Origin: Echinarachnius parma
Lineage: Eukaryota; Echinodermata; Echinoidea; Clypeasteroida; Echinarachniidae
Assembly (NCBI GenBank): GCA_037951105.1
Contig: JBAMJV010001825.1
Span: forward strand, 67,501-131,500
Direction of reading: 5' to 3'
Length of the DNA stretch: 64,000 nt
A program made the translations under genes and the position numbers. Shown piece by piece: positions 2,726 to 55,450 of the stretch. The notes under the pieces are model-generated. The model was not told where the DNA came from and did no database searches. It was given only the letters and a program-made list of their open reading frames with translations. Position 1 is the first letter of the stretch. Every line of letters begins with the position of its first letter.

Positions 2726-3373
2726 TTTCACTCAGACGATATCGGCCTCAGCCTCAGACTCCCGATGCTTTTGTTGTTGTTGTCGTTGTTTTATCAAAAA
2801 CGCGCACGCGATCATATCGTATCGAGAACCTCACGAAAAAATAAGCCTCTAAACCAGTTACATGATCATTTAAACTCAGGCTAGGCGAGGAGTATTTGTT
2901 TACGAATTACTGTTTGTGATGTAAACATTATGCTTATGTCATTGATGCCTTTTAAGAGATGTGAAATAAAGTTAATTTGAATTGAATTTCTGTGAGATGG
3001 CAAAATATAGATGATATTTGAAAAAATACCTTGTGCATTAGATTTCTATAGCGCCTATACATATGAAAAATCTTCATGCTTCAAAAACGGACTTATTTGG
3101 GGTCATACATTTTGCTTGAAAAATTAACTACTTGTTCATAAAAGGAAATTAATCTTGAATTGAATTGAATTGAATTTATTGAATGTATTTATTTAAAAAA
3201 AACACACACATGAAATACAAACTAGACATGAAATTCGTCATAGACGAATTAGGTGATACGTACCCATTTGAAAATGTATCTTTTGAACCTTGAACCTTGA
3301 AGAAATTACTCTCCCAAAAGCGTTAACGCTGTCCTGGAGAGGGCTGTGCTGTGTTGCGTGCTGTTGGTGATGT

Positions 3374-3443
3374 GACCGGGCTGAAGTTAGTTACTTTTTC
3401 CTTATTGGATATTCGATCGTTTACTTATTCGATATTCATTTAC
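3374..3443 (+). repeat. outer inverted repeat, left copy
   Basis: The stretch starting ACCGGGCTGAAGTT and running through TTACTTTTTCCTTATTGGA to TTTACTTATTCGATATTC is found again in reverse complement at 10914-10975. One substitution and one 4-bp insertion (ATCG) separate the arms over about 60 bp. The pair brackets the whole satellite block. Confidence 0.75.
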
Positions 3444-3559
3444 TTTATTCGATATTCATTTACTTATTCGGTTTTTCGTCGTTCAACACACATCACTCGA
3501 TCACGCAGCCGTTATGCGTGCGTAGAGATTAGAGGGACCAGGTCCAGGAGCGGAGCTGC

Positions 3560-3625
3560 ATGAGGCTAAGGGAGGGGGGAGGGGGGGCGGAGGGGAGGGG
3601 GGGGGGGTGGGGGGGGGGGTGGGTC
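3560..3625 (+). repeat. G-rich tract flanking the satellite
   Basis: Almost pure G interrupted by single A, C or T. It sits just outside the left end of the satellite. A C-run (10629-10648) is in the mirror position on the right, so the G-rich strand points inward from the left and the C-rich strand from the right. Such runs can form G-quadruplexes. Confidence 0.8.
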
Positions 3626-3689
3626 AATTGAACATATTATTCACGGACATGCATATTAAAAGGGAAAAAAGCAAGAAAACATAATTTAT

Positions 3690-6640
3690 TCAAATATACG
3701 GTGCCCCAAAGTGCCCTAGTCCACATGGACCGGCGCGGGCAGCCACCTATCTCAGGTGGTCAAACGATCATAAGAGGAACCCAGAATGGGTCAGCTTGAC
3801 CCGGTCCATGTGGTTTAAGATGGTCAAATTGACCATTATTAAAGGACATGTATAATATTTAAAAAAATGAAAAAAAACAAATTATCACTAAAATATATAT
3901 AAGTGCCCCAAAGTGCCCTAGTCCACATGGACCGGGCAGCCACCTATCTCAAGTGGTCAAACATCATCAGAGGAACTCAGAATAGGTCAGCTTGACCCGG
4001 TCCATGTGGTTTGAGGTGGTCAAATTGACCGGTATTAAAGGACATGTATAATATTTAAAAATAGTAAATAACAAATTATCACTAAAATATATATATAAGT
4101 GCCCCAAAGTGCCCTAGTCCACATGGACCAGGCAGCCATCTATCTCAAATTGTCAAACATCATCAGAGGAACCCAGAATAGGTCAGCTTGACCCGGTCCA
4201 TGCGGTTTAAGGTGGTCAATTTGACCATTAGTAAAGGACATGTATATATTTTTTAAAAAATGAAAATATCAAATTATCAGTAAAATATATATAAGTGCCC
4301 CAAAGTGCCCTAGTCCACATGGACCGGGCAGCCACCTATCTCAAGTGGTCAAACATTATCAGAGGAACCCAGAATAGGTCAGCTTGACCCGGTCCATGTG
4401 GTTTACGGTGGTCAATTTGACCATTATTAAAGGACATGTATAATATCACAAAAATTGAAAATAACAAATTATCACTTAAATAAATATTAAGTGCCCACAA
4501 AGTGCCCTAGTCCACATGGACCCGGGCAGCCACCTATCTCAATTGGTCAAACATCATCAGAGGAACTCAGAATAGGTCAGCTTGACCCGGTCCATGTGGT
4601 TTGAACTGGTCAAATTGACCGGTATTAAAGGACATGTATAATATTTAAAAATTGAAAATATCAAATTATCAGTAAAATATTTATAAGTGCCCAAAGTGCC
4701 CTAGTCCACATGGACGGGCAGCCACCTATCTCAAGTTGTCGAACATCATCAGAGGAACACAGAATAGGTCAGCTTGACCCGGTTCATGTGGTTTGAGGTG
4801 GTGAAATTTGACCATTATTAAAGGACATGTATAATATTTAAAAAAAAATGAAAATATCAAATTATCAGTAAAATATATATAAGTGCCCCAAAGTGCCCTA
4901 GTCCACATGGACCGGGCAGCCACCTATCTCAAGTTGTCAAACATCATCAGAGAAACCCAGAATAGGTCAGCTTGACCCGGTCCATGTGGTTTGAGGTGGT
5001 CAAATTGACCCATTAATAAAGGACAATGTATAATATTTCAAAAAAAAAATGAAAAAAAAAACAAATTATACACTAAAATATATCTAAGTGTCCCAAAGTG
5101 CCCTAGTCCACATGGACCCGGGGCAGCCACCTATCTCAAGTGGTCAAACATTATCAGAGGAACCCAGAATAGGTCAGCTTGACCCGGTCCATGTGGTTTA
5201 CCGGTGGTCAAATTTGACCATTATTAAAGGACATGTATAATATCACAAAAATTGAAAATAACAAATTATCACTTAAATATATATAAGTGCCCCAAAGTGC
5301 CCTAGTCCACATGGACCGGGCAGCCACCTATCTCAATTGGTCAAACATCATCAGAGGAACTCAGAATAGGTCAGCTTGACCCTGGTCCATGTGGTTTGAA
5401 CTGGTCAAATTGACCGGTATTAAAGGACATGTATAATATTTAAATATAGAAAATAACAAATTATCACTAAAATATATATAAGTGCCCCCAAAGTGCCCTA
5501 GTCCCACATTTGACCGGGCAGCCATCTATCTCAAATTGTCAAACATCATCAGAGGAACCCAGAATAGGTCAGCTTGACCCGGTCCATAGCGGTTTAAGGT
5601 GGTCAATTTGACCATTATTAAAGGACATGTATAATATTTAAAAAAAAAGTGAAAATATCAAATTATCAGTAAAATAGTTATAAGTGCCCCAAAGTGCCCT
5701 AGTCCACATGGACCGGGCAAGCCCACCTATCTCAAGTTGTCGAACATCATCAGAGGAACACAGAATAGGTCAGCTTGACCCGGTCCATGTGGTTTGAGGT
5801 GGTCAAAATTGACCATTATTAAAGAACATGTATAACATCAAAACAATTGAAAATAACAAATTATCACTAAAATATATATAAGTGCCCCAAAGTGCCCTAG
5901 TCCACATGGACCGGGCAGCCACCCTATCTCAAGTGGTCAAACATCATCAGAGGAACTCAGAATAGGTCAGCTTGAACCCGGTCCATGTGGTTTGAGTTGG
6001 TCAAATTGACCGGTATTAAAGGACATGTATAATATTTAAATTAGAAAATAACAAATTATCACTAAAATATATATATAAGTGCCCCAAAGTGCCCTAGTCC
6101 ACATGGACCAGGCAGCCATCTATCTCAAATTGTCAAACATCATCAGAGGAACCCAGAATAGGTCAGCTTGACCCGGTCCATGCGGTTTAAGGTGGTCAAT
6201 TTGACCATTAGTAAAGGACATGTATAATATTTTTAATAAAATGAAAATATCAAATTATCAGTAAAATATATATAAGTGCCCCAAAGTGCCCTAGTCCACA
6301 TGGACCGGGCAGCCCACCTATCTCAAGTGGTCAAACATCATCAGAGGAACTCAGAATAGGTCAGCTTGACCCGGTCCATGTGGTTTGGAGTTGGTCAAAT
6401 TGACCGGTATTAAAGGACATGTATAATATTTAAAATTAGAAAATAACAAATTATCACTAAAATATATATATAAGTGCCCCCAAAGTGCCCTAGTCCACAT
6501 GGACCAGGCAGCCATCTATCTCAAATTGTCAAACATCATCAGAGGGAACCCAGAATAGGTCAGCTTGACCCCGGTCCATGCGGTTTAAGGTGGTCAATTT
6601 GACCATTAGTAAAGGACATGTATAATATTTTTAAAAAAAT
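3690..6640 (+). repeat. satellite array, about 15 forward monomers (~195 bp)
   Basis: Monomers start at a recurring GTGCCCCAAAGTGCCCTAGT (for example 3700, 3902, 4100, 4294, 4490, 4686, 4881, 5287, 5683, 5881, 6078, 6277 and 6474), giving a spacing of about 195-205 bp. Each has a conserved GC-richer half and an AT-rich spacer ending in TATATATAA. Inside each monomer CCACATGGACCGGG and its reverse complement CCCGGTCCATGTGG lie about 70 bp apart, so each unit can fold into a 14-bp stem. Single-base indels are frequent. No ORF of interest spans the units. Confidence 0.95.
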
Positions 6641-9600
6641 GAATTCTGAGTTCCTCTGATGATGTTTGACCACTTGAGATAGGTGGCTGCCCCGGTCCAT
6701 GTGGACTAGGGCACTTTGGGGCACTTAATATTAGTAATAATTTGTTATTTTCAATTTTGTTTAATATTATACATGTCCTTTAATAATGGTCAATTTGACC
6801 ACCTCAAACCACATGGACCGGGTCAAGCTGACCTATTCTGTGTTCCTCTGATGATGTTCGACAACTTGGAGATAGGTGGCTGCCCGGTCCATGTGGACTA
6901 GGGCACTTTGGGAGGCACTTATAAATATTTTACTGATAAATTTGATATTTTCACTTTTTTTTAAAAATATTATACATGTCCTTTAATAATGGTCAAATTG
7001 ACCACCTTAAACCGCATGGACCGGGTCAAGCTGACCTATTCTGGGTTCCTCTGATGATGTTTGACAACTTGAGATAGGTGGCTGCCCGGTCCATGTGGAC
7101 TAGGGCACTTTGGGGCACTTATATATATTTTAGTGATAATTTGTTTTTTTTCATTTTTTTAAATATTATACATGTCCTTTATTAATGGTCAAATTGACCA
7201 CCTTAAACCACATGGACCGGGTCAAGCTGACCTATTCTGGGTTCCTCTGATGATGTTTGACCACTTGAGATAGGTGGCTGCCAGGTCCATGTGGACTAGG
7301 GCACTTTGGGGCACTTATATATATTTAGTGATAATATGTAAATATTTTCCATTTTTTTAGATAATATACACGTCCTTTAATAAGGGTCAAATTGACCACA
7401 TTAAACCACATGGACCGGGCCAAGCTGACCTATTCTGGGTTCCTCTGATGATGTATGACCACTTGAGATAGGTGGCTGCCCGGTCCATGTGGACTAGGGC
7501 ACTTTGGGGCACTTAGCTATTTCAGTGATAATTTGTTATTTTCAATTTTTTCAATATTATTCATGTCCTTTAACATTGGTCAATTTGACAACCTTAAACC
7601 ACATGGACCGGGTCAATTTGACCTATTCTGGATTCCTCTGATGATGTTTGACCACTTGAGATAGGTGGCTGCCCGGTCCATGTGGACTAGGGCACTTGTA
7701 TATATTTTACTGATAATTGGTTTTTTTTCATTTTTTTAAATATTATACATGTCCTTTAATTATGGTCAAATTGACCACCTTAAACCACATGGACCGGGTC
7801 AAGCTGACCTATTCTGGGTTCCTCTGATGATGTTTGACAATTTGAGATAGATGGCTCCCCGGTCCATGTGGACTAGGGCACTTCGGGGCACTTATATATA
7901 TTTTAGTGATAATTTGTTATTTTTAATTTTTTTGATATTATACATGTCCTTTAATAATGGTCAATTTGATCACCTTAAACCACATGGACCGGGTCAAGCT
8001 GACCTATTCTGGGTTCCTCTAATGATGTTTGACTACTTGAGATAGGTGGCTGCCCGGTCCATGTGGACTAGGGCACTTTGGGGCATTTATATATATTTTA
8101 GTGATAATTTGTTTTTTTCATTTTTTTTACATATTATACATGTCCTTAATTAATGGTCAAATTGACCACCTTAAACCACATGGACCGGGTCAAGCTGACC
8201 TATTCTGGGTTTCTCTAATGATGTTTGACAACTTGAGATAGGTGGCTGCCCGGTCTATGTGGACTAGGGCACTTTGGGGCACTTATATATATTTTACTGA
8301 TAATTTTATATTTTCAATTTTTTTAAATATTATACATGTCCTTTAATAATGGTCAATTTGACCACCTTAAACCACATGGACCGGGTCAAGCTGACATATT
8401 CTGGGTTCCTCTGATGATGTTTGACAACTTGAGATAGGTGGCTGCCCGGTCCATGTGGACTAGGGCACTCTGGGGCATTTATATATATTTTAGTGATAAT
8501 TTGTTTTTTTCATTTTTTTAAATATTATACATGTCCTTAATTAATGGTCAAATTGACCACCTTAAACCACATGGACCGGGTCAAACTGACGTATTCTGTG
8601 TTCCTCTGATGATGTTTGACCACTTGAGATAGGTGGCTGCCCGGTCCATGTGGACTAGGGCACTTTGGGGCACTTATATATATTTTAGTGATAATTTGTT
8701 ATTTTCTATTTTAAAATATTATACATGTCCTTTAATAATGGTCAAATTGTACACCTTAAACCACATGGACCGGGTCAAGCTGACCTATTCTGGGTTCCTC
8801 TGATGATGTTTGACCACTTGAGATAGGTGGCTGCCCGGTCCATGTGGACTAGGGCACTTTGGGGCACTTATATATATTTTAGTGATAATTTGTTATTTTC
8901 TATTTTAAAATATTATACATGTCCTTTAATAATGGTCATATTGTACACCTTAAACCACATGGACCGGGTCAAGCTGACCTATTCTGGGTTCCTCTGATGA
9001 TGTTTGACCACTTGAGATAGGTGGCTGCCCGGTCCATGTGGACTAGGGCACTTTGGGGCACTTATATATATTTTACTGATAATTTTATATTTTCAATTTT
9101 TTTAAATATTATACATGTCCTTTAATAATGGTCAATTTGACCACCTTAAACCACATGGACCGGGTCAAGCTGACATATTCTGGGTTCCTCTGATGATGTT
9201 TGACAACTTGAGATAGGTGGCTGCCCGGTCCATGTGGACTAGGGCACTCTGGGGCATTTATATATATTTTAGTGATAATTTGTTTTTTTCATTTTTTTAA
9301 ATATTATACATGTCCTTAATTAATGGTCAAATTGACCACCTTAAACCACATGGACCGGGTCAAACTGACGTATTCTGTGTTCCTCTGATGATGTTTGACC
9401 ACTTGAGATAGGTGGCTGCCCGGTCCATGTGGACTAGGGCACTTTGGGGCACTTATATATATTTTAGTGATAATTTGTTATTTTCTATTTTAAAATATTA
9501 TACATGTCCTTTAATAATGGTCAAATTGTACACCTTAAACCACATGGACCGGGTCAAGCTGACCTATTCTGGGTTCCTCTGATGATGTTTGACCACTTGA

Positions 9601-10600
9601 GATAGGTGGCTGCCCGGTCCATGTGGACTAGGGCACTTTGGGGCACTTATATATATTTTAGTGATAATTTGTTATTTTCTATTTTAAAATATTATACATG
9701 TCCTTTAATAATGGTCATATTGTACACCTTAAACCACATGGACCGGGTCAAGCTGACCTATTCTGGGTTCCTCTGATGATGTTTGACCACTTGAGATAGG
9801 TGGCTGCCCGGTCCATGTGGACTAGGGCACTTTGGGGCACTTATATATATTTTAGTGATAATTTGTTATTTTCTATTTTAAAATATTATACATGTCCTTT
9901 AATAATGGTCAAATTGTACACCTTAAACTACATGGACCGGGTCAAGCTGACCTATTCTGGGTTCCTCTGATGATGTTTGACCACTTGAGATAGGTGGCTG
10001 CCCGGTCCATGTGGACTAGGGCACTTTGGGGCACTTATATATATTTAGTGATAATATGTAAATATTTTCCATTTTTAAAAATAATATACACGTCCTTTAA
10101 TAGTGGTCAAATTGACCACCTTAAACCACATGGACCGGGTCAAGCTGACCTATTCTGGGTTCCCCTAAAGATGTTTTACGACTTGAGATAGGTGGCTGCC
10201 CGGTCCATGTGGACTAGGGCACTTGTATATATTTTACTGATAATTTGTTTTTTTCATTTTTTTTAAATATTATACATGTCCTTTAATTATGGTCAAATTG
10301 ACCACCTTAAACCACATGGACCGGGTCAAGCTGACCTATTCTGGGTTCCACTGATGATGTTTGACAACTTGAGATAGGTGGCTGCCCGGTCCATGTGGAC
10401 TAGGGCACTTTGGGGGCACTTATATATATTTTAGTTAAAATATGTGTTAATATTTTTCATTTTTTAGAATAATATACATGTCCTCTTATAATGGTCAGTT
10501 TGACCACCTTCAACCTCATGGACCTATTCTTGGTTCCTCTTACGATGTTTGACGGGGTTTGACCACTTGAGATAACTAGGTGGCTGCCCGTGCCATGTGT
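6641..10600 (-). repeat. satellite array, about 20 reverse-oriented monomers
   Basis: The same ~195-bp monomer continues in the opposite orientation: GGGCACTTTGGGGCACTTAT recurs from about 6710 to 10404. The switch is abrupt near 6641, where the AT-rich spacer of the last forward unit joins the middle of a reversed unit. Part of this block is a four-monomer higher-order duplication: 8281 onward recurs at 9060 onward (offset 779 bp), sharing private variants such as the change to GACGTATTCTGTG. The last unit (10480-10600) is degraded. Confidence 0.95.
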
Positions 10601-10628
10601 ACAATGTTAGCGCCTTCATCGGAAGCAC

Positions 10629-10648
10629 CCCCCCCCCCCCCCCCCCCT
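10629..10648 (+). repeat. C-run flanking the satellite
   Basis: An uninterrupted run of about 20 C, just outside the right end of the satellite. It mirrors the G-rich tract at 3560-3625. Confidence 0.85.
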
Positions 10649-10913
10649 TGTGGATACGCCAATCAGAAATTATACAGCGTTTATTTCCTTATTATGTCTA
10701 CGTCTTGAGGTAGAATGCTGGATAAATGACACATAAATCGACACAAAACAGGTAAAAAAGATAACTACTTTGAAATCATGACGATTATTTGAGCAATTGT
10801 CGGAGATTATAGTTGATTTTGAGTACGTTATACTTATGTTTAGTAGGGTACTCTTCACGAGCGCGTCACGGGCAGCTAGCGGCGTAGCGTGCCGACACCG
10901 GTAGCGCCGAATA

Positions 10914-10975
10914 TCGAATAAGTAAACGAATATCCAATAAGGAAAAAGTAACCAACTTCAGCCCGGTGGTGAACC
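10914..10975 (-). repeat. outer inverted repeat, right copy
   Basis: Reverse complement of the left copy at 3374-3443. It ends with AACTTCAGCCCGGT. Sequence beyond it on both sides is GGTGA-rich but I cannot define a convincing target-site duplication. Confidence 0.75.
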
Positions 10976-10979
10976 GATG

Positions 10980-12170
10980 TGGTGTTGGTGAAGTGATGGT
11001 GGTTGTTCTCCGTGCACTATATACAATGTGCAGGGTGCAGTGTGCAGGTGGTGCAGGTGTGTCCCTCGTTACAACAATCTTAAACCGATTAGATTTGCAG
11101 GAAATCTTAATAAGGAAAAATTATTCAGAGGTCTATCAGTAAAGATTTGTTGTGAACACCTCAAAATCCAAGATGGTGTCCAATAAAGCAGCTGTTTTGA
11201 TTTGTTATAGATAATTGGTGAAATGTACCAAACGACACCTGTAATCAGCATGATTTTGCAGTTATATTAAAGACAATAGACGTTTCTATAATCTGATAAT
11301 AATCATTATTGGGTTCAAGATATGTTACATGGTTACTAGTAGTTGTAGTCCCAAACTTAAATTTTAGGCATTTTCCCCCAACAATAGAAAATTATTGATT
11401 TACATAATTTGGTGTAGATCAATAATTATATTAGTAGTTGGATTAATACTTTTTGAAGAACTGCCAAGTTATATTAGCAATACTATGTGAAAGTTTTAAG
11501 TGTGTACCATATCTGAACAAAAAGTTATAATATCTGGAAGTCAACATTTAATATCGACAAAAAAGGCAGTTTTGCACCATTTATCATGCTGAACAGGGTG
11601 TCTACAAAATTTGTAATCGTGATTATAGGATTTGTGTAGTCAATAGTTGCGTTAATCTTGGGACATCTTCATTTCTAGTTATGAACAAAACCAACTTTTT
11701 CTGTAATATGACGAATATTCCACCATCATTTTGTAATCCGCGTAGATGTTGTGTTTGTCTTGTATTAGTTTATGAATTTATCAATACTCAAGCGCTAGAA
11801 ATGAACTTAATTCCACTCCCCATGGAGCATTCAAATCAGCTGGATAATGACGCGCCTGCCAGGCCTATTGTGAATTTGAATCATACTGGGTGTTGCCCAT
11901 GATGTTTTTAAAGCATTGTCAAGATCATATTAATTATCTTAAGTAAGTATCTTATTGAAGTACACAATATTAGAGCGTATCTAGATTCGAACTCCATATT
12001 GATTGCAAGGCACGCACCTTTCATGCCCTACACATCTTATTGCATTTATCTGGAAACCATAAAGGTCTATACAAATGGCCGACTTAGTATTTAAAAAAAA
12101 TTAGATCTTTGCCTCCGGTATATACACTGTTATGGACAAATCACATCCTGAGTTAAACTTTTTGTTATAT
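10980..12170. other. non-coding stretch between satellite and retrotransposon
   Basis: AT-rich, with no ORF above chance length and no repeat recognised. Confidence 0.5.
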
Positions 12171-12174
12171 AATT

Positions 12175-14875
12175 TCTAGATGTTTATATAATTTATATAA
12201 TTTCTAGATGTTTTTATGTGTAATTCGATGTACCCAGTCATTCATTTTCCAACCCGTGTTTCTGATCATTCTGCTACTTTAATTGATAATATTTTTACAA
12301 ATGACTTAAACAATATTTTGTCTGGTATTATTTTAGTTGACGTTAGTGACCATTTTCCTATATATTGTATTCATAATGATTTTGTTAATGATACAAGTAG
12401 AATAACAAAGAAACGTGATTTATGTGATAGAAATATAAATATTTTTATTGAAAAATTGAAAAAAGTACCATGGCGTATTAATAATAATGACCCAAATGTT
12501 AAGTATGACAATTTTTTACATCAATTTATGGAAATATATGATGAATGTTTTCCTCTAAAAAATAAGATTGTTAAATTGCGTAAAGACAAGCCTTGGTTTA
12601 ATGAAGAGCTGCGTAAATTGTGTAAAAAGAGGTATGATTTATATAAAAAATTTATTAAGAATCCAACTGCTTATAGAGAACGTATTTATAAAGAATTTCG
12701 AAACAAGGTGAATAATGAAATTAAGCGTACAAAAAATGCCTATTTAAAAAAATTGTTTTCTGATGTTAAATATAATATGAAAAAAACATGGGATGTATTT
12801 AATAAAGCATTAGGAAAAACTTCAAAATCAAGTATGATCGATTGCATTGAAGTTAACGATCAGAAAATTACAGACGAATATGATATAGCACAATCGTTTA
12901 ATGAATATTTTGTAAATACAGGTATATCTCTTTCTAATCACCTTCAAAGTGATAATATTAATGAGAATGATTTTGTGCAATACTTGGAAGAAAATCCTCA
13001 GACAGCATTTTTTAAACCGATCACTCCTGGAGAGATTGTAACTATAATTTGTAATTTTCAGAATCGATCAAGTGCGGGTTGTGACGATATTAATATATCG
13101 ATTATTAAAAAGGTTATTCACATAATTTGTTTTCCATTGTGCAATATATTTAATTCTTCTTTGAACACTGGTATATTTCCGGATAAATTAAAGGTGGCAA
13201 AAGTAACGCCGGTTTATAAGAGTGGTCTGAGTTCAAGCCTGAACAATTATAGACCTATTTCAGTGTTACCTGTTTTTTCAAAGATTTTAGAAAAATGTAT
13301 ATATAATCGGCTTTTAAACTTCTTGGAAAAGTGTGATATTTTATCTAACACACAGTATGGTTTCAGAGCAGGGCACTCCACATCCTCTGCTATAATTGAT
13401 TTAGTTGCTAAAGTTTCTTCAGCCTTTAATTCTAAAAATATATTACTTGGTTTGTTTCTTGATTTGAGTAAGGCTTTCGATACTTTAGATCACTCCATTT
13501 TGTTATATAAGTTACATAATTACGGTATTCGTGGTGTCCTTTTAAAATTATTTCAAAGTTACTTGTCAAATCGTAAACAATATGTTGTCATTAATAATCA
13601 TAAATCTGATATGAGTGCAATTGAATGTGGAGTGCCCCAAGGCTCAATTCTTGGCCCACTTTTATTTCTTGTTTATATGAACGATATATGTAATGTCTCA
13701 AATAAGTTGCAATTTATTTTGTTTGCAGACGATACCAGTGTGTTTATGTCAGGTGACGATATTGATACTTTAATTTTGAATTTTAATTTTGAATTGTTTA
13801 AAATTAATCACTGGTTAATATTAAATAAATTGGTTCTTAATGTAAATAAAACTCGTTACATGTTTTTTACTCACAAGAAAATTGATTATGATAATGTTGT
13901 CATTTGTATGAATGATGAGAATATTCAACGTGCTAATTCATTTAAGTTTTTGGGTGTCTTGATCGATAGTAAGCTTGTTTGGCATGACCACATCGATACT
14001 GTCTGCAATAAACTTTCTAAATGTATTGGTATTTTAAATCGATTGAAATTTTTTCCACGAAATATTTTATTAATGATTTATAATGCAATTATTTCTCCAT
14101 ACCTCCATTATTGTAATACTACTTGGGCTAACAATTGTAATTATTCAATGATGAGATTGTTTCGTTTACAGAAGAAATCCGTAAGACTTGTATATCATGC
14201 CCACTACCTTGCCCATACCAAACCAATATTTTGTGATTTAAAATTATTGAATGTATTTGATCTTAATAATTTTAACATTGCTATATTTATGTATTTATGT
14301 TTTAAAGATTTGATTCCATGTAGTCTTGCAAATTTGTTTCATCTTAATTCCGATAAGTATACATACAATATGCGAAATCAATTAACTTATAGTTTACCGC
14401 GTGTACATAATAATGTAGCCATGAACTCAATCTGTTTTAAAGGACCAAAAATTTGGAATAAATTACCGATACATGTAAAACTAAGCCCCACTCTATCAGC
14501 TTTTAAACGGAGATATAGATTAATCTTGTTACAGTAAATGTTTATAATTTTTTTTTTTTTTTTAGGTCAGGCCTTTTAAAATTGTATATGTGTATGTTTT
14601 TTTTGTTTTTTTTGTTTTTTTGTTTTTTTGTTTTTTTTTGTTTTTTTTTTTTCATGTTGTATATGTCTATGTTATGTAGGTAGGTTTTAATTCAATTTTA
14701 TATATTCGGTGGCAGCATTAATAAGGCTATTTTGCTCTTTCTAGCTGTCTCCTCATTCTCATAATTGTATTTATCTGTTGTTATATTTTGTAAATTTTGA
14801 TGTGATTTGTTAATGTTATTGTTTTTATGAGATTTGAAATAAATGATCAATTCATTCATTCATTCATTCGATTAT
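12175..14875 (+). mobile_element. 5'-truncated non-LTR retrotransposon (CR1/Jockey-like group)
   Basis: The unit contains the distal end of an apurinic-type endonuclease, a complete reverse transcriptase and a T-rich 3' UTR. It ends at AATAAATGATCA followed by four to five ATTC repeats, a tail typical of CR1/L2/Jockey relatives that end in a short microsatellite rather than poly(A). The 5' end is truncated: the reading frame homologous to the endonuclease begins abruptly near 12190, beside a duplicated TTTCTAGATGTTT. No ORF1 or N-terminal endonuclease is visible upstream. Truncation of this kind is expected from incomplete target-primed reverse transcription. Confidence 0.85.
12216..14537 (+). 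CDS. endonuclease (partial) / reverse transcriptase ORF
   Basis: A 773-codon uninterrupted frame. Residues about 8-55 match the last part of an APE-type endonuclease, with FPTRVS, ATLIDNIF and the C-terminal SDH motif (DVSDHFPIY). The reverse transcriptase spans roughly residues 310-570. NNYRPIS is at 343-349, the first catalytic aspartate D416 is in FLDLSKAFDTLDH, GVPQGS is at 472-477, and FADD is at 503-506 with D505 and D506 completing the triad. After the RT comes the usual C-terminal region of this group (FKFLGV, a Y-N-A segment, a KIWNKLP-like end). Homology continues upstream of the first ATG in frame (FLDVF), so that ATG is internal. The RT looks enzymatically intact, so the copy is fairly young, but without the endonuclease N-terminus it cannot be autonomous. 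Confidence 0.9.
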   Translation: MCNSMYPVIHFPTRVSDHSATLIDNIFTNDLNNILSGIILVDVSDHFPIYCIHNDFVNDTSRITKKRDLCDRNINIFIEKLKKVPWRINNNDPNVKYDNFLHQFMEIYDECFPLKNKIVKLRKDKPWFNEELRKLCKKRYDLYKKFIKNPTAYRERIYKEFRNKVNNEIKRTKNAYLKKLFSDVKYNMKKTWDVFNKALGKTSKSSMIDCIEVNDQKITDEYDIAQSFNEYFVNTGISLSNHLQSDNINENDFVQYLEENPQTAFFKPITPGEIVTIICNFQNRSSAGCDDINISIIKKVIHIICFPLCNIFNSSLNTGIFPDKLKVAKVTPVYKSGLSSSLNNYRPISVLPVFSKILEKCIYNRLLNFLEKCDILSNTQYGFRAGHSTSSAIIDLVAKVSSAFNSKNILLGLFLDLSKAFDTLDHSILLYKLHNYGIRGVLLKLFQSYLSNRKQYVVINNHKSDMSAIECGVPQGSILGPLLFLVYMNDICNVSNKLQFILFADDTSVFMSGDDIDTLILNFNFELFKINHWLILNKLVLNVNKTRYMFFTHKKIDYDNVVICMNDENIQRANSFKFLGVLIDSKLVWHDHIDTVCNKLSKCIGILNRLKFFPRNILLMIYNAIISPYLHYCNTTWANNCNYSMMRLFRLQKKSVRLVYHAHYLAHTKPIFCDLKLLNVFDLNNFNIAIFMYLCFKDLIPCSLANLFHLNSDKYTYNMRNQLTYSLPRVHNNVAMNSICFKGPKIWNKLPIHVKLSPTLSAFKRRYRLILLQ

Positions 14876-22441: not shown

Positions 22442-36905
<14,464 letters not shown>

Positions 36906-49800: not shown

Positions 49801-52800
49801 ACACATGTATAGAATTGACACACCCGCAAATGTTTGGCGCTTATGGAGCATAAGGGCATGTTAATTTTGTAAGTTTGGGTGATTAATAGCATTGTTTATG
49901 AATTACACAACTCTTGGAAAAGTGTTGAACATCTATTTAATATCCCTTTCCACTGCATACAATCCAAGATCCATCTAGGTTAATATATTATTAAGATAAC
50001 TGTATCACTGTATATCGAACGAGTTGAACTATTCTTATGCAACTGCTGTACTTTTCTTTTTGCGTGTAGGAAATGAAGGCAGAACTGAGCCATCTAGCAC
50101 ACCATGTTTGTGAGGTGGATAAATACAAAGTGGAAACATGTTGTGTGATAGGTAGGTATTCTACTTCTTCTTTATTTTATCATAATAATCATTTCTTCCT
50201 TGTCTTACTCTTTCTCTTTTCATCCTCTTCCTCCTCTTCTTCCTCCTCCTCCTCATTCTCTTCATTCTCCTCCTTATTCTCCACTTCCTCTTCTTCCTTC
50301 TCCTTCTATTCCTTCTCATCCTTTTCTTTCTCTTCATCTTTCCTTCCTAATGCTCCTCCTTCTCCTTTTCCTCCACCTCATCCACTTCTGTTTATCCTTG
50401 TCAATGTTATTATGCGGACGTTTCTCCACCATACATTCCTGCCCGTATATCCACCTGATATTACCATTGCAAACTTCATTCCTCTTCAACATATGTCTAT
50501 ACCATCACAATATTAACAACTTTCTGCATTTACATACAATAAAACTAGATTAAGGACAATTGTTTTTAGATTATATTTCCTCCGTTTTTCTTTGTTGCCA
50601 TTATTCAGCTGGAATTTATTAATTTATGGCTAAAAAATAGCACTCGCCCAATTGCCAGGGCCCATTAAAAGTTGATATCATTTAGAGAAAAAATTAATTC
50701 CTTACATGTAAATCTCATCTAAAACAAAGAAGAAATTAGTAAGACAAATTTACACGTTCACTGTTGCACTGTTTTTTTTTTTTTTGTGGGTTGGGGGGGG
50801 GGGGGGGGGGGAGGAGGCAAGTAACTATTCTGTTTTGGCAAGTAAAATGTGGAAATTCATAATTTTATGGGGGAGTAGTAAATAATGTTAGTGTGGATGC
50901 TTGCATAGTATACTAATCATACCTTCTTTTTAATTTGTCTACACATGATCACAGGTAACTACTACTCTCTGAGAGCCCAGCATGAGAAAGCAGTGCTGTA
51001 TTTCCAGAGGGCCCTGAAACTCAACCCCCACTACCTGTCAGCCTGGACCCTCATGGGCCACGAGTACATGGAGATGAAGAACACACCTGCTGCCATCGAG
51101 GCATACAGGCAGGCCATAGGTAATACATGATGATGAGGATGACTATGATGACGATGACAATGACGATGATGATGATGATGATGATTATGATGATGATGAT
51201 GATGATGATGAAGAGGATGATGGATGATGAGGATGAGGATGATGATGATTATGAGGATGAATAGGATGATGATGAGGATGATGATGATGACAATGATGAT
51301 GTTGATGATGATACACATCACAAAGATGATGAAGAGGAGGAGGAGGATGATTGATAACAATTCTAGATTTTTTCTGAATGTCAATGATTTTAACTGCTAC
51401 CCAGCATGAGAAAGCAGTGCTGTATTTCCAGAGGGCCCTGAAACTCAACCCCCACTACCTGTCTGCCTGGACCCTCATGGGACACGAGTACATGGAGATG
51501 AAGAACACACCTGCTGCCATCGAGGCATACAGACAGGCCATAGGTACTACATCATGATGATTAGGATGATGATGGTGATGGTGGCGGTGGCGGTAGCGAT
51601 GGCAGTGGCGATGACGATAACAATAATGATGATGACTGATTATCATTATCATGAAAAAGAATAAAATGAAATTAGAAGAAGTCATAATACTACTAATAAT
51701 AACAATGGTAATAATAATGATATCAATAGTACAAATAATAATGCAAACTATACTAATATTTTTGTGACTATCAATGATGTTAACCTTGTACCTCTAACAT
51801 TGATCCTGGTCGATTATTTTTCAGAGGTGAACAAGCGTGACTTCAGGGCGTGGTACGGTCTAGGTCAGACGTATGAGATACTCCGGATGCCATTCTACTG
51901 TCTCTACTACTACAGACAAGCTCAGCAACTCAGGTTCGTTGTTAGTCTTACGGTAGTCTTTTTATGCCTAAGCCCAGATAATGATTTTTCTTTGCTCATT
52001 TGATTTGATTCATTTTTTTCTGGTCAATTTTCTCTATGTTTAAATGCAAGTTATTTGATTAAAGGGATCTAGTAACTTTGTTGACATGTGCAAAAGGTGA
52101 TGAGTGGTTAATACAATGTATATTGTTGTTATCTGATATGTCCACTTGGTGCTGTGTGAACATGTCAAGTTAAATGGACGTTATATGGCTGAGTAATGAG
52201 CAAAAATGCAAAGTGATATTCACTAACTCATTGCACTCACTTTGTACACGGTTTTGCGGTCTAGTGGATAATTCAACATCTGAACACTTCAATCGTAAAT
52301 ATCTTTTTAACAAAAGGGACATTTGAAAAACTGAAACCTGTCCCGTACTTTTATTGTTAATACGAATACAACAAGGTATGAGGGAACCGTTAGAATTCCA
52401 ATTGGATTTTGAGGATTTGGACAATGTTCCAAGTCCCTTTAATGGTGGTACTACACATAAACCCTTTCAATGCTAGTGCTAGTCAGAAGCTATTTACACT
52501 GGACAACATTCTAAATGATTAGATAGTGGCTTTTCATTTTTTCGCTCTTTTTTTCTAAACTAAGCTGTTTGACAGAACATTTTCGCAGCCTATTCTGCAA
52601 GCAGAGGCAATAAAACATACATGACTTGCCCATTCAACTAATGTTTTTGTGCATAACAACATTGGTTCAAGGTGGATAAGGTCGTAGCCGACCTCTTGTG
52701 ACCCCTCTGTTCCTCTCTAGCCAGGTTTTTCCTCTCTTGCACATGTTTCAATGTTCTTAAATCCATCTCCATCATTTCCTTAAAAGGGATTCTAGTAACT

Positions 52801-55450
52801 AGTAACCTGTTGAAATGTGCAAAAAATGATAAATGGTTGATAAAATGTGCATTTAAAAAAACTTGATATGTCGACTGAGTAATGTGTGAACATATCACGT
52901 TAAATGGATATTATATAATTTCCTTTATAAACCATTACGTAACCTTAAATTGTGATGACAGGCCAAACGATTCCCGGATGCTGGTTGCTCTTGGTGAGAG
53001 TTACGAGCGACTGGAGAAGATTGCAGAGGCCAAGAAGTGCTACTGGAGAGCCTACTCTGTGGGGGACATCGAGGGCATGGCTCTGGTCAAGTTAGCAAGG
53101 TATATTCATCTATTTATTGGAAGGAATGCTCCCCAGGGAGTGGAGATGGTGCACGCAATGTGTGCTGGTTTGCATTGTATCCTACGACTAGTTTCCTAAT
53201 TTCAACCTATTAAAATATATGCCCTACCAACTAATAGTTTCATGCTAAGTTTGTGCTGTTGGATGTTAGTTCAAAGTTTGCAACAAGTATTTGTTTTAGT
53301 AGCCAACTAGGATTTAATACATTGTACACACTTGTGTTTCAAACTAAGCTGAGCTTCCTATAAATAATAATACCAAATAATAATGGTGGCTATTTATTCA
53401 TCAAATTATTTTCTTAAGAACTGAATCCTTGCAAATGAACCAATTCTGCATACAAAGTGTTACAATAACTCCATGAGTCCATTTTTTTCATGAGATGTAC
53501 AACATAGGAATATATCTTGAAAACATCGCGCACACCCATATCTCAAACTAACCTGAACTCTAAATCCATTCATCTCTTACACACTTGTACTGGATTCTTG
53601 CAAATAAATTGTTACAATTTTGTTTTCAAAGGTTGCACGAGAAGTTCAATGAAGATGAAAAAGCGGCATCTTTCTATTCCAAGTATGTGGAACAGATGGA
53701 GACGATGGGAGTAAGTATTGATGAATAATGATGGAAAATGACGTATAATAATTATAATATATACCAGGCGAATGACAAATTAAATAATTTCAATGTGAGC
53801 AGCGCTTGCTCCTATGCTATATTGGGTAAAATTTGAGCAGAATTGATGGAGAAATTAGAAAAATATATTATTGTTCCACTTCAATCATTCAAAATTGTTT
53901 TGTTTTCTCAAATTTTCACTGATTGTGAGGTACTCGGACATTATGATCAATCATTATGTTCAACATGAGCAAAGCATTATACAGTCAAACCTGCTCAAGC
54001 GACCACCTGTCTATAAAAAACCACCTCCTTATAAAGACCACTAATACTGATTCTCTTGAAGGCAAATCACAAGTGAAAGAACATGTCTATAAAGACTACC
54101 TGATCATTAAGACCACATTTTTTGTATCCCTTGGGTGGTCTTTATAGTCCGGTTTAACTATTTTAATATTATCATTATATGTGACCGGCTATAGCAAAAC
54201 CCTGCACTTGTCGTTAAAAATCAAAATGTAGATGTTCATACCATTAGAAAGGCCTCGTCACAAGCTTTCATTTGATGGTTTGTTCTAAAAAAATGGTCAA
54301 TAATTGGCGAAGATATGATTGTTTCAATTGTACAATCATAAGTCTTTTACACACATTATGTAAACTTAAAATGCCAATTTTTTCAAAACATGAATTACCA
54401 ACAAGTGCAGGGTTTTGCTATAGCCGATTAGCCGGTCACATATATATAAGTAGTACTATCATCATGAGCATATTTGTTTCTTCTAAACTATAATACTGAT
54501 ATTTGATCTCTCCTAGACGGCAGACTCGGAGGAGCAGTCCCAGGCGTACCGCTACCTGGCTCGCTACCACCTCAAGCAGAGCAACTTTGATGAGGCCACA
54601 AACTATGCTCACAAGTGCTGTGACCACACAGAGGTAACCTTTTATTACATATTACCCCTCTCTCCTCTCTCTCTTCCTCTCATTGATGAAAGATAATAAA
54701 TGAAAATATGCATTTAGAAGATCAGGGCAACCACATATATATTCAGATGAATTGTCGGGCTACTGTTGCTTGGCTCGCTACCACCTCAAGCAGAGCAACT
54801 TTGATGAGGCCACAAACTATGCTCACAAAGGCTGTGACCACACAGAGGTACAAATGAGTGACGCTGTACTGAATGGACAATGAACGATTAACAATAATTT
54901 GTTGGATCTATATACAAAGATAAACCCCGAGTTCGTTTCATTTTATTATATTTGATTCTACAAAATTTGTTGCTCATATGTTTACAAAAGATAGTATAAA
55001 AATAAAACATAATTCTGAAGTAAGGTAAGAATTGCAGATTATTTGTCCATTTTTGTTGCAACGACCTTGTTTAATTTTTGAGTTGTGTGATAATTTCCAC
55101 CAATTTGTCTTCAAAATATTGCCTTTATAGACATTTTTACAAGTTCAACATCCTTGTGAATTAAACAAAATAATATTATTTTTCTGCCTATGTATATTTG
55201 GCTCATTTTGTTGTTGTTGCTGAGGTAAGCTCTCTCTTGGATATCTAATGCATGATGTTAAAGCAACTTTCTTGCATCTTCTTTGAATGTTTAAATGTTT
55301 AAATGCTGTGTTGTGATATTATGGAATTATGCAATGCTCTTTACTATCTTTCCACTATATTCTGTACATACATAATGTGATCCTTCTTAATATTTTTTTT
55401 TGTACAGCACAGACACATATGTAATAAGTACTTTACAGTTTACAAATGTA

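What the first reader, a model, noticed from the sequence alone, without database searches (positions are those of the whole stretch)
3374..10975. A 7.6-kb inverted superstructure built from one satellite, with its own terminal repeats
The satellite is not a simple array. About 15 forward monomers meet about 20 reversed monomers at one junction (6641). G-rich and C-rich tracts sit in mirror positions outside them, and a ~60-bp inverted repeat lies outside those. The nested symmetry (outer repeat, G-run, satellite, junction, satellite, C-run, outer repeat) suggests one unit that moves or amplifies as a whole, or a large foldback produced by replication repair. The stretches between outer repeat and homopolymer differ on the two sides (about 120 bp against 265 bp), so the symmetry is not perfect. 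I do not recognise this element as a described family.
Basis: partly seen in the sequence, partly recalled or inferred. Interest (0 to 1): 0.7.

Follow-up and report, generated by a model that had tools for sequence, protein, structure and literature searches.

The report
Mobile element made of opposed satellites
The 7.6-kb stretch is one young copy of a DNA transposon that consists almost entirely of two opposed satellite-DNA arrays and has jumped around a probable echinoderm genome; it is a new family of a known but little-studied kind (foldback transposons), and its ordered repeats record how such arrays are copied, flipped and cut.

Summary
Observation confirmed, edges sharpened: the unit is 3375-10967, with ~60-bp terminal inverted repeats, unlike subterminal segments, ~15 forward and ~20 reversed ~196-bp monomers, junction 6642/6643. 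It moves as a whole. Many loci share the ends; 6 of 11 same-contig end pairs have perfect 9-bp target duplications (4 do not). The window's target is visible: eight uninterrupted host-repeat copies give the empty site; the right duplication carries a 5-bp insert. Monomer order is shared between loci (177 shared 4-grams, shuffled mean 8.3), so ordered arrays travelled inside the element. Ends are nearly identical, so the burst is recent. Five relatives carry all or most of a ~1.4-kb middle; in one it is inverted with adjoining monomers, as recombination between arms predicts. The window lacks the middle; seven bare copies, window included, show five or six different junctions, best read as deletions. 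No transposase was found. It works like Tetris and Rehavkus-1_TC (foldback type); the 9-bp duplication suggests a Mutator/Rehavkus transposase, unproven. A replication-repair foldback is not supported: the arms carry different monomer orders. New member of a known kind, with unusually long arms.

The parts
3283..3374 (-). Left part of the interrupted host repeat (short repeat with TTGAA-type repeats at this edge; read as the 3' fragment of a non-LTR element, by inference)
   Evidence: 83-92 bp identical to 8 uninterrupted copies
3366..3374 (.). Left target-site duplication GGTGATGTG
3375..3437 (+). Left terminal inverted repeat, begins ACCGGGCTGAAGTT
3438..3693 (+). Left subterminal segment, with G-rich tract 3570-3623
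   Evidence: outer 195 bp of the left end (terminal repeat included) almost identical in 15 copies; copies
3694..6642 (+). Forward array, about 15 monomers of about 196 bp
6642..6643 (.). Junction of the opposed arrays (1-bp microhomology); read as the scar of a deletion that removed the middle
   Evidence: middle present in relatives
6643..10553 (-). Reversed array, about 20 monomers of about 194 bp
8275..9833 (-). Recent tandem duplication of a four-monomer block (about 779 bp each); four monomer pairs with 0 differences
   Evidence: block present once in C4428
10554..10908 (-). Right subterminal segment, with C-run 10628-10647
10909..10967 (-). Right terminal inverted repeat
   Evidence: last 63 bp found in 25 places at 100%, window included
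10968..10981 (.). Right target-site duplication interrupted by 5 bp: GGTGA-ACCGA-TGTG
   Evidence: comparison with 8 empty sites
10982..11076 (-). Right part of the interrupted host repeat
   Evidence: 95 bp identical to 8 uninterrupted copies

Best explanation
The stretch 3375-10967 is one copy of a young, non-autonomous DNA transposon of the foldback type. Shown: it has defined ends, inserts as one unit with a 9-bp target duplication, and carries its two ordered, opposed satellite arrays with it. Shown in relatives: a ~1.4-kb middle lies between the arms in some copies; in one copy the middle is inverted together with adjoining monomers; arrays gain and lose blocks. Inferred: a transposase made elsewhere in the genome (most likely of the Mutator/Rehavkus group, from the 9-bp duplication) recognises the ~60-bp ends and cuts and pastes the unit; the opposed arms recombine with each other, which inverts the core and swaps monomers between arms; the hairpin-prone centre is repeatedly deleted, which gave the window copy its bare junction.
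For: Same ends at many loci with sharp boundaries at 3375 and 10967. 9 of 9 matching flanks in 6 of 11 same-contig pairs, plus two cross-contig matches. Empty site in 8 of 8 fetched copies of the host repeat. Outer 315 bp of the right end: mean pairwise difference 0.0004 over 15 copies, 91 of 105 pairs identical; outer 195 bp of the left end 0.0007, 91 of 105 identical. Monomer order shared across loci: 16 of 16 left arms start with the same monomer type, 10 of 10 arms that reach the right end finish with the same two types, and shared 4-grams number 177 against a mean of 8.3 and a maximum of 24 in 500 shuffles. Inversion in C5263: the middle is reversed, and the monomers on its far side read as the reverse of the inner end of the C8547 forward arm. 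Five or six distinct junctions in seven bare copies.
Against: No transposase gene was found in the copies read; 24 MULE-domain matches in the genome lie on none of the contigs listed with these ends. 4 of 11 same-contig pairs have unmatched flanks (C1292, C4217, C1616, C4857), which needs chimeric assembly or ectopic exchange; 7 of 16 left ends have no partner among 26 right ends. Two of the seven bare junctions (C4217, C1292) lie in such contigs and could be assembly joins, and C1428 ends before its right end. C4217 and C880 share a junction and C4428's lies within a base of it, so the deletions are not all independent. The window's right duplication carries an unexplained 5-bp insert. The superfamily rests on the duplication length alone.
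Confidence: 0.88

Rival explanations
1. A large foldback (inverted duplication) made by replication repair of a local satellite array, not a mobile unit.
For: Opposed arms about 90% alike; in C4428 the junction lies on a 14-bp inverted repeat inside the monomer, a place where a strand could fold back.
Against: Arms carry different monomer orders, not mirror copies; same ends and same orders at many loci; 9-bp duplications and empty site. The 14-bp sequence is also a direct repeat between a forward and a reversed monomer, so a deletion explains that junction equally well.
Confidence: 0.04
2. The opposed arrangement is an assembly artefact of collapsed or wrongly joined satellite reads.
For: 1.2-Gb assembly in 14,790 contigs; 4 of 11 same-contig end pairs have unmatched flanks, and the left flank of C4857 matches the right flank of C1616, as joins through near-identical satellite would give.
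Against: Opposed arms in five further loci with perfect 9-bp duplications across the whole span (C10660, C880, C8547, C4428, C5263); ordered monomers reproduced between loci; the window's own flanks fit one empty site.
Confidence: 0.04
3. A foldback transposon moved by a transposase outside the Mutator group (for example P/Galileo-like, Merlin or an undescribed one).
For: FB-like anatomy arose in several superfamilies: the Tm1 paper (passages read) notes a P-type transposase in Galileo; no MULE gene is linked to these ends.
Against: 9-bp duplication in the matched pairs; the Mutator review gives 9 bp for Rehavkus and 8-11 bp for MULEs (passages); Galileo's 7 bp is recalled, not checked.
Confidence: 0.3
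4. A Helitron/Helentron carrying a central satellite array, as in oysters.
For: Those also disperse satellite-like arrays (title and start of abstract of PMC7492417 seen in the listing).
Against: Terminal inverted repeats and 9-bp target duplications; Helitrons are recalled to have neither; the arrays here are opposed.
Confidence: 0.01

Closest known systems
Tetris, foldback transposon of Drosophila virilis (PMC4079207; first parts of the results and discussion sections read)
   Same: Long inverted termini with ~220-bp tandem repeats inside a flanking domain, variable middle, target duplications of 8-10 bp, no transposase found, arrays that expand inside the element
   Different: Tetris termini are reported up to 1,735 bp, with arrays of up to 66 repeats in larger satellite-like stretches; here arms run from about 2 to more than 8 kb and elements with matching duplications from 7.4 to 31.6 kb; no sequence comparison was possible; a 37-bp likeness between flanking domain and monomer in Tetris has no significant counterpart here
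Rehavkus-1_TC of Tribolium (passages in PMC10218199; Rehavkus group in PMC6446971, passages)
   Same: [quoted passage not shown] 9-bp duplications for the group
   Different: Rehavkus encodes a transposase with a PHD finger; none found here; arrays here are longer; the review lists Rehavkus only from arthropods and annelids
Tm1, Mutator/Foldback family of root-knot nematodes (passages in PMC3169594)
   Same: Composite inverted termini of variable length, 9-bp duplications, many non-autonomous copies
   Different: Repeat motif of ~14 bp, asymmetric 7-bp end motifs, Phantom-like putative transposase known
TU elements of sea urchin and FB of Drosophila (recalled; FB and a sea urchin foldback are only named)
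   Same: Foldback class with tandem repeats in the inverted termini; TU is from an echinoderm
   Different: Recalled: repeat units of 10-31 bp (FB) and ~15 bp (TU), TU duplications of 8 bp; no sequence was compared

Membership tests
Foldback-type transposon (structural class) | Dispersed copies with the same ends | tested here: met
Foldback-type transposon (structural class) | Long inverted termini built of tandem repeats, variable in number | tested here: met
Foldback-type transposon (structural class) | Short fixed-length target duplication | tested here: met
   9 bp in 6 of 11 same-contig pairs and by empty site in the window; 4 of 11 pairs unmatched
Mutator superfamily (MULE) | Target duplication of 8-11 bp | tested here: met
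   range from passages
Mutator superfamily (MULE) | MULE-type DDE transposase within the same ends | tested here: inconclusive
   24 MULE-domain matches in the genome, none on the contigs listed with these ends; the lists are capped and the assembly is in pieces
Rehavkus | Transposase with PHD finger | tested here: inconclusive
   no open frame over 145 aa in the middles of C8547 and C13824; no model of the Rehavkus transposase was searched
Rehavkus | 9-bp duplication and minisatellite by the terminus | tested here: met
   definition from passages
Tetris | Sequence identity of ends or repeats to Tetris | not testable with these tools
   no Drosophila genome or Repbase held
TU elements | Outer domain of ~15-bp tandem repeats (recalled) | tested here: not met
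   repeat unit is 194-196 bp; the left terminal repeat has only 2.6 copies of a ~20-bp unit

The most novel reading that the evidence does not exclude
The transposon is an invertible, self-editing carrier of satellite DNA: its opposed arms recombine in cis as part of the normal life of the family, which flips the core, shuffles monomers between arms and trims the centre, while transposition spreads each edited, ordered array to new sites. Satellite arrays in this genome would then descend by copying of whole ordered arrays rather than by homogenisation in place.
Probability: 0.3. Interest if true: 0.62.

Novelty: new member of a known kind. Interest (0 to 1): 0.45.

Why it matters
It gives a young, multi-copy foldback family in which most monomers can be typed, so that array growth, loss, inversion and arm exchange can be read as events on a pedigree of copies. 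That bears on an open question: whether satellites arise from tandem repeats already present in transposons, and how arrays are copied. It also explains, without any special process, why this satellite sits in mirror image, and warns that assemblies may be mis-joined through such elements.

Tried and rejected
Likeness between the terminal repeat and the monomer (a possible reiterated transposase site): best shared stretch 7 bp; 854 of 1000 dinucleotide shuffles of the monomer score as high. Rejected as evidence.

Coding content: no open frame over 145 aa in the middle of C8547 or C13824. Pfam at E up to 0.1 on three of the C13824 frames gave none for two and, for the third, one below-threshold match to a phage protein (Kyano_Gp96, E 0.068, 13.7 bits against a cut-off of 27), taken as chance. 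MULE domain PF10551: 24 matches, no shared contig; the fetched region of one of them (C8713) shows no terminal repeat at up to 3 mismatches.

First idea that the host repeat was LTR-like was dropped: its left edge varies among copies and ends in TTGAA-type repeats, which looks like the 3' end of a non-LTR element; not proven.

A test whether the ~5-kb extra segment in the C13824 middle was captured from elsewhere in the genome and a second family model, which I recalled as Mutator-like, did not complete.

The mean distance between monomers of the same arm is about the same within a locus (0.062) as between loci (0.062 forward, 0.071 reversed): no sign of homogenisation by locus.

Monomers without two clean anchors 170-215 bp apart were dropped before clustering; they show as gaps, most in C4428.
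Full report
What is there. The window holds two opposed tandem arrays of one ~196-bp monomer: 3701-6643 (14.8 copies) and 6643-10524 (19.9 copies). The arms align as inverted repeats at about 90%. Outside them lie unlike subterminal segments with a G-rich and a C-rich tract, and outside those a ~60-bp terminal inverted repeat beginning ACCGGGCTGAAGTT, from 3375 on the left and to 10967 on the right. G/C runs also occur elsewhere in the window and in flanks of other loci and add little alone.

Edges and copies. A search of the window's genome (1.2 Gb, 14,790 contigs) with 3300-3700 gave 14 other loci at 94-97% starting at or within two bases of the same edge, two more in part (C4409, cut by the contig start; C8547, split), and 14 at 74-81% (40 of 439 candidates scored). 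The right end gave 24 other loci at 99-100%, one at 97% and 14 at 90-91%, stopping at 10967 or within seven bases of it (40 of 772 candidates scored). The last 63 bp alone gave 25 places at 100%, window included, 2 at 98%, 13 at 95% and a further piece at 86% (40 of 90 candidates scored). These are lower bounds. Twelve contigs carry both a left end of the main family and a right end. In the 11 with both ends complete the spans run from about 7.4 kb (C4428) to 31.6 kb (C2625) (coordinates, subtraction mine). Both of these have matching duplications, but C2625's is a simple repeat (AAG); the next longest with a matching duplication is C10660, 15.4 kb.

Target duplications. Flanks of these 11 pairs were compared: 6 match 9 of 9 (C10660, C2625, C5263, C880, C8547, C4428), 5 do not (window, C1292, C4217, C1616, C4857). 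With 11 further right ends added, 16 left ends were tested against 26 right ends; two more exact matches appeared: C10215 left with C2231 right, whose contigs break inside the element, and C4857 left with C1616 right. The latter means that these two contigs join halves of different insertions, by chimeric assembly or by ectopic exchange; I cannot tell which. Seven left ends besides the window's have no partner in this set.

The window's empty site. The left flank is part of a short repeat. Eight other copies, those listed, were fetched, and all eight read ...GTTGGTGATGTG|GTGTTGGTGAAG... without interruption. In the window the right flank reads GGTGA-ACCGA-TGTG and then continues as the repeat. 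So the element sits in a 9-bp duplication GGTGATGTG whose right copy has a 5-bp insert that I cannot explain. The match to the host repeat runs 83-92 bp to the left and 95 bp to the right.

Age. Outer right ends of 15 copies differ by 0.0004 on average (91 of 105 pairs identical); outer left ends of 15 copies by 0.0007 (91 of 105 identical). The burst is recent.

Ordered arrays. 596 monomers from 16 loci, later 662 from 23 stretches of 20 contigs, were clustered at 2%; monomers without clean anchors were dropped. The nearest relative of a monomer is in another locus for 525 of 596. All 16 left arms start with the same type and 13 of 16 with the same three in a row (my count); 10 of 10 arms that reach the right end finish with the same two types. 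Shared ordered 4-grams with at least three different types number 177 against a shuffled mean of 8.3 and maximum of 24 (500 shuffles). Hence ordered arrays were copied as parts of the element. The two arms have different orders, so they are not recent mirror copies of each other. In the window's reversed arm a block of four monomers is duplicated without a difference; C4428 has it once.

The middle and its inversion. Four fetched loci have a shared middle between the arms (C13824, C5329, C8547, C5263), and a genome search adds C4409; apart from a ~350-bp stretch near its end, which belongs to a very common short repeat, the scored matches to this middle lie only in these five (40 of 8097 candidates scored, so others may be missed). 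It has the same direction relative to the ends in four and is reversed in C5263. The C5263 forward arm ends with monomer types that elsewhere lie mostly in the reversed arm (some also in the forward arm of C10660), and beyond the reversed middle the arm reads 5, 50, a ~454-bp gap, 0, which is the reverse of the inner end of the C8547 forward arm. This is what recombination between the opposed arms would make. The forward arms of C10215 and C2625 also hold a run of types of the outer reversed arm. In C13824 the middle is about 6 kb and has 1,073 bp of the shared sequence, with no frame over 145 aa; whether the extra part was captured from elsewhere was not settled. In C5697 the forward array is followed by a different sequence, not resolved.

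Junctions. Seven fetched copies have a bare forward-to-reversed junction: window (1-bp microhomology), C10660 (1 bp), C4217 and C880 (identical), C4428 (14 bp, at the monomer's own inverted repeat, within a base of the C4217/C880 place), C1292 (6 bp), C1428 (6 bp). That is six by sequence, five if C4428 is counted with C4217/C880. C4217 and C1292 have unmatched flanks, so their junctions could be assembly joins, and C1428's right end is beyond the contig. Window, C10660, C880 and C4428 are free of that doubt. With the middle known from relatives, deletions of the centre are the simplest reading. That the middle-bearing form is ancestral is inferred.

Organism. The only COX1 match (C14600) reads well with TGA=W, AGA=S, ATA=I and AAA=N. 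The AAA=N point rests on one codon and a recalled motif. With the general likeness, also recalled, this suggests an echinoderm; the species is unknown.

How it works. Shown: insertion as a unit, ordered arrays carried along, a reversed core in one copy, variable junctions. Inferred: a transposase supplied in trans, cut and paste, recombination between arms, deletion at the hairpin-prone centre. No transposase was found: 24 MULE-domain matches lie on none of the contigs listed with these ends. The 9-bp duplication is the only ground for a Mutator/Rehavkus assignment; the review gives 9 bp for Rehavkus and 8-11 bp for MULEs (PMC6446971, passages).

Comparison. Tetris (PMC4079207, sections partly read) and Rehavkus-1_TC (passages of PMC10218199) have the same plan at smaller scale; Tm1 (PMC3169594, passages) links foldback-like termini and 9-bp duplications to a Phantom-like Mutator transposase. 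A claim that this family is unpublished cannot be made: the listings of five searches of the paper library (some capped) showed no echinoderm account of it, but Repbase is not held.

Verdict. A real, ordinary kind of thing in an unusually large, young and readable form.

Noticed in passing
10968-10981: Right target duplication carries a 5-bp insert (ACCGA or a shifted equivalent) that resembles the first bases of the terminal repeat; unexplained.
   Followed up: partly
L020 and L041 (contigs C4857, C1616): Left flank of C4857 and right flank of C1616 share the same 9-mer, so the two contigs join halves of different insertions: assembly chimera or ectopic exchange.
   Followed up: partly
12201-14537 (+): 778-codon open frame with a reverse transcriptase domain (RVT_1, E 3.3e-34): a retroelement, probably non-LTR, just outside the element.
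   Followed up: partly
23481-24381: Two perfect tandem copies of a 450-bp unit (100%); very recent duplication or assembly artefact, with a 48-base A run nearby at 23149-23196.
   Followed up: no
25250-25970 and 34411-35438: Two further tandem arrays, 155 bp x 4.7 (97%) and 151 bp x 6.8 (96%).
   Followed up: no
51665-53199 (+): Two open frames that look by recall like exons of CDC23/APC8; Pfam gives only weak, below-threshold TPR matches for 52879-53199 and none for 51665-52003.
   Followed up: no
L024-L028 (contigs C2594, C3388, C8743, C5004, C80): Diverged subfamily (76-81% in the left end) with a directly doubled ~39-bp terminal unit and related monomers; C3388 has a 730-codon frame, reverse-transcriptase-like by eye, inside its array; C80 shows a ~4-kb higher-order duplication.
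   Followed up: partly
L023 9185-9535 (contig C8547, middle): A ~350-bp stretch near the end of the middle belongs to a very abundant short repeat (8097 first-look candidates).
   Followed up: no
L066, L067 (contigs C609, C7960): Second right-end subfamily (90-91%) with long reversed arrays, about 43 and 31 monomer matches in the fetched parts.
   Followed up: partly
L010 9050-9901 (contig C5697): Forward array ends in a sequence that is not the shared middle but is 77-83% like window 31213-31657; another middle or a nested element.
   Followed up: no
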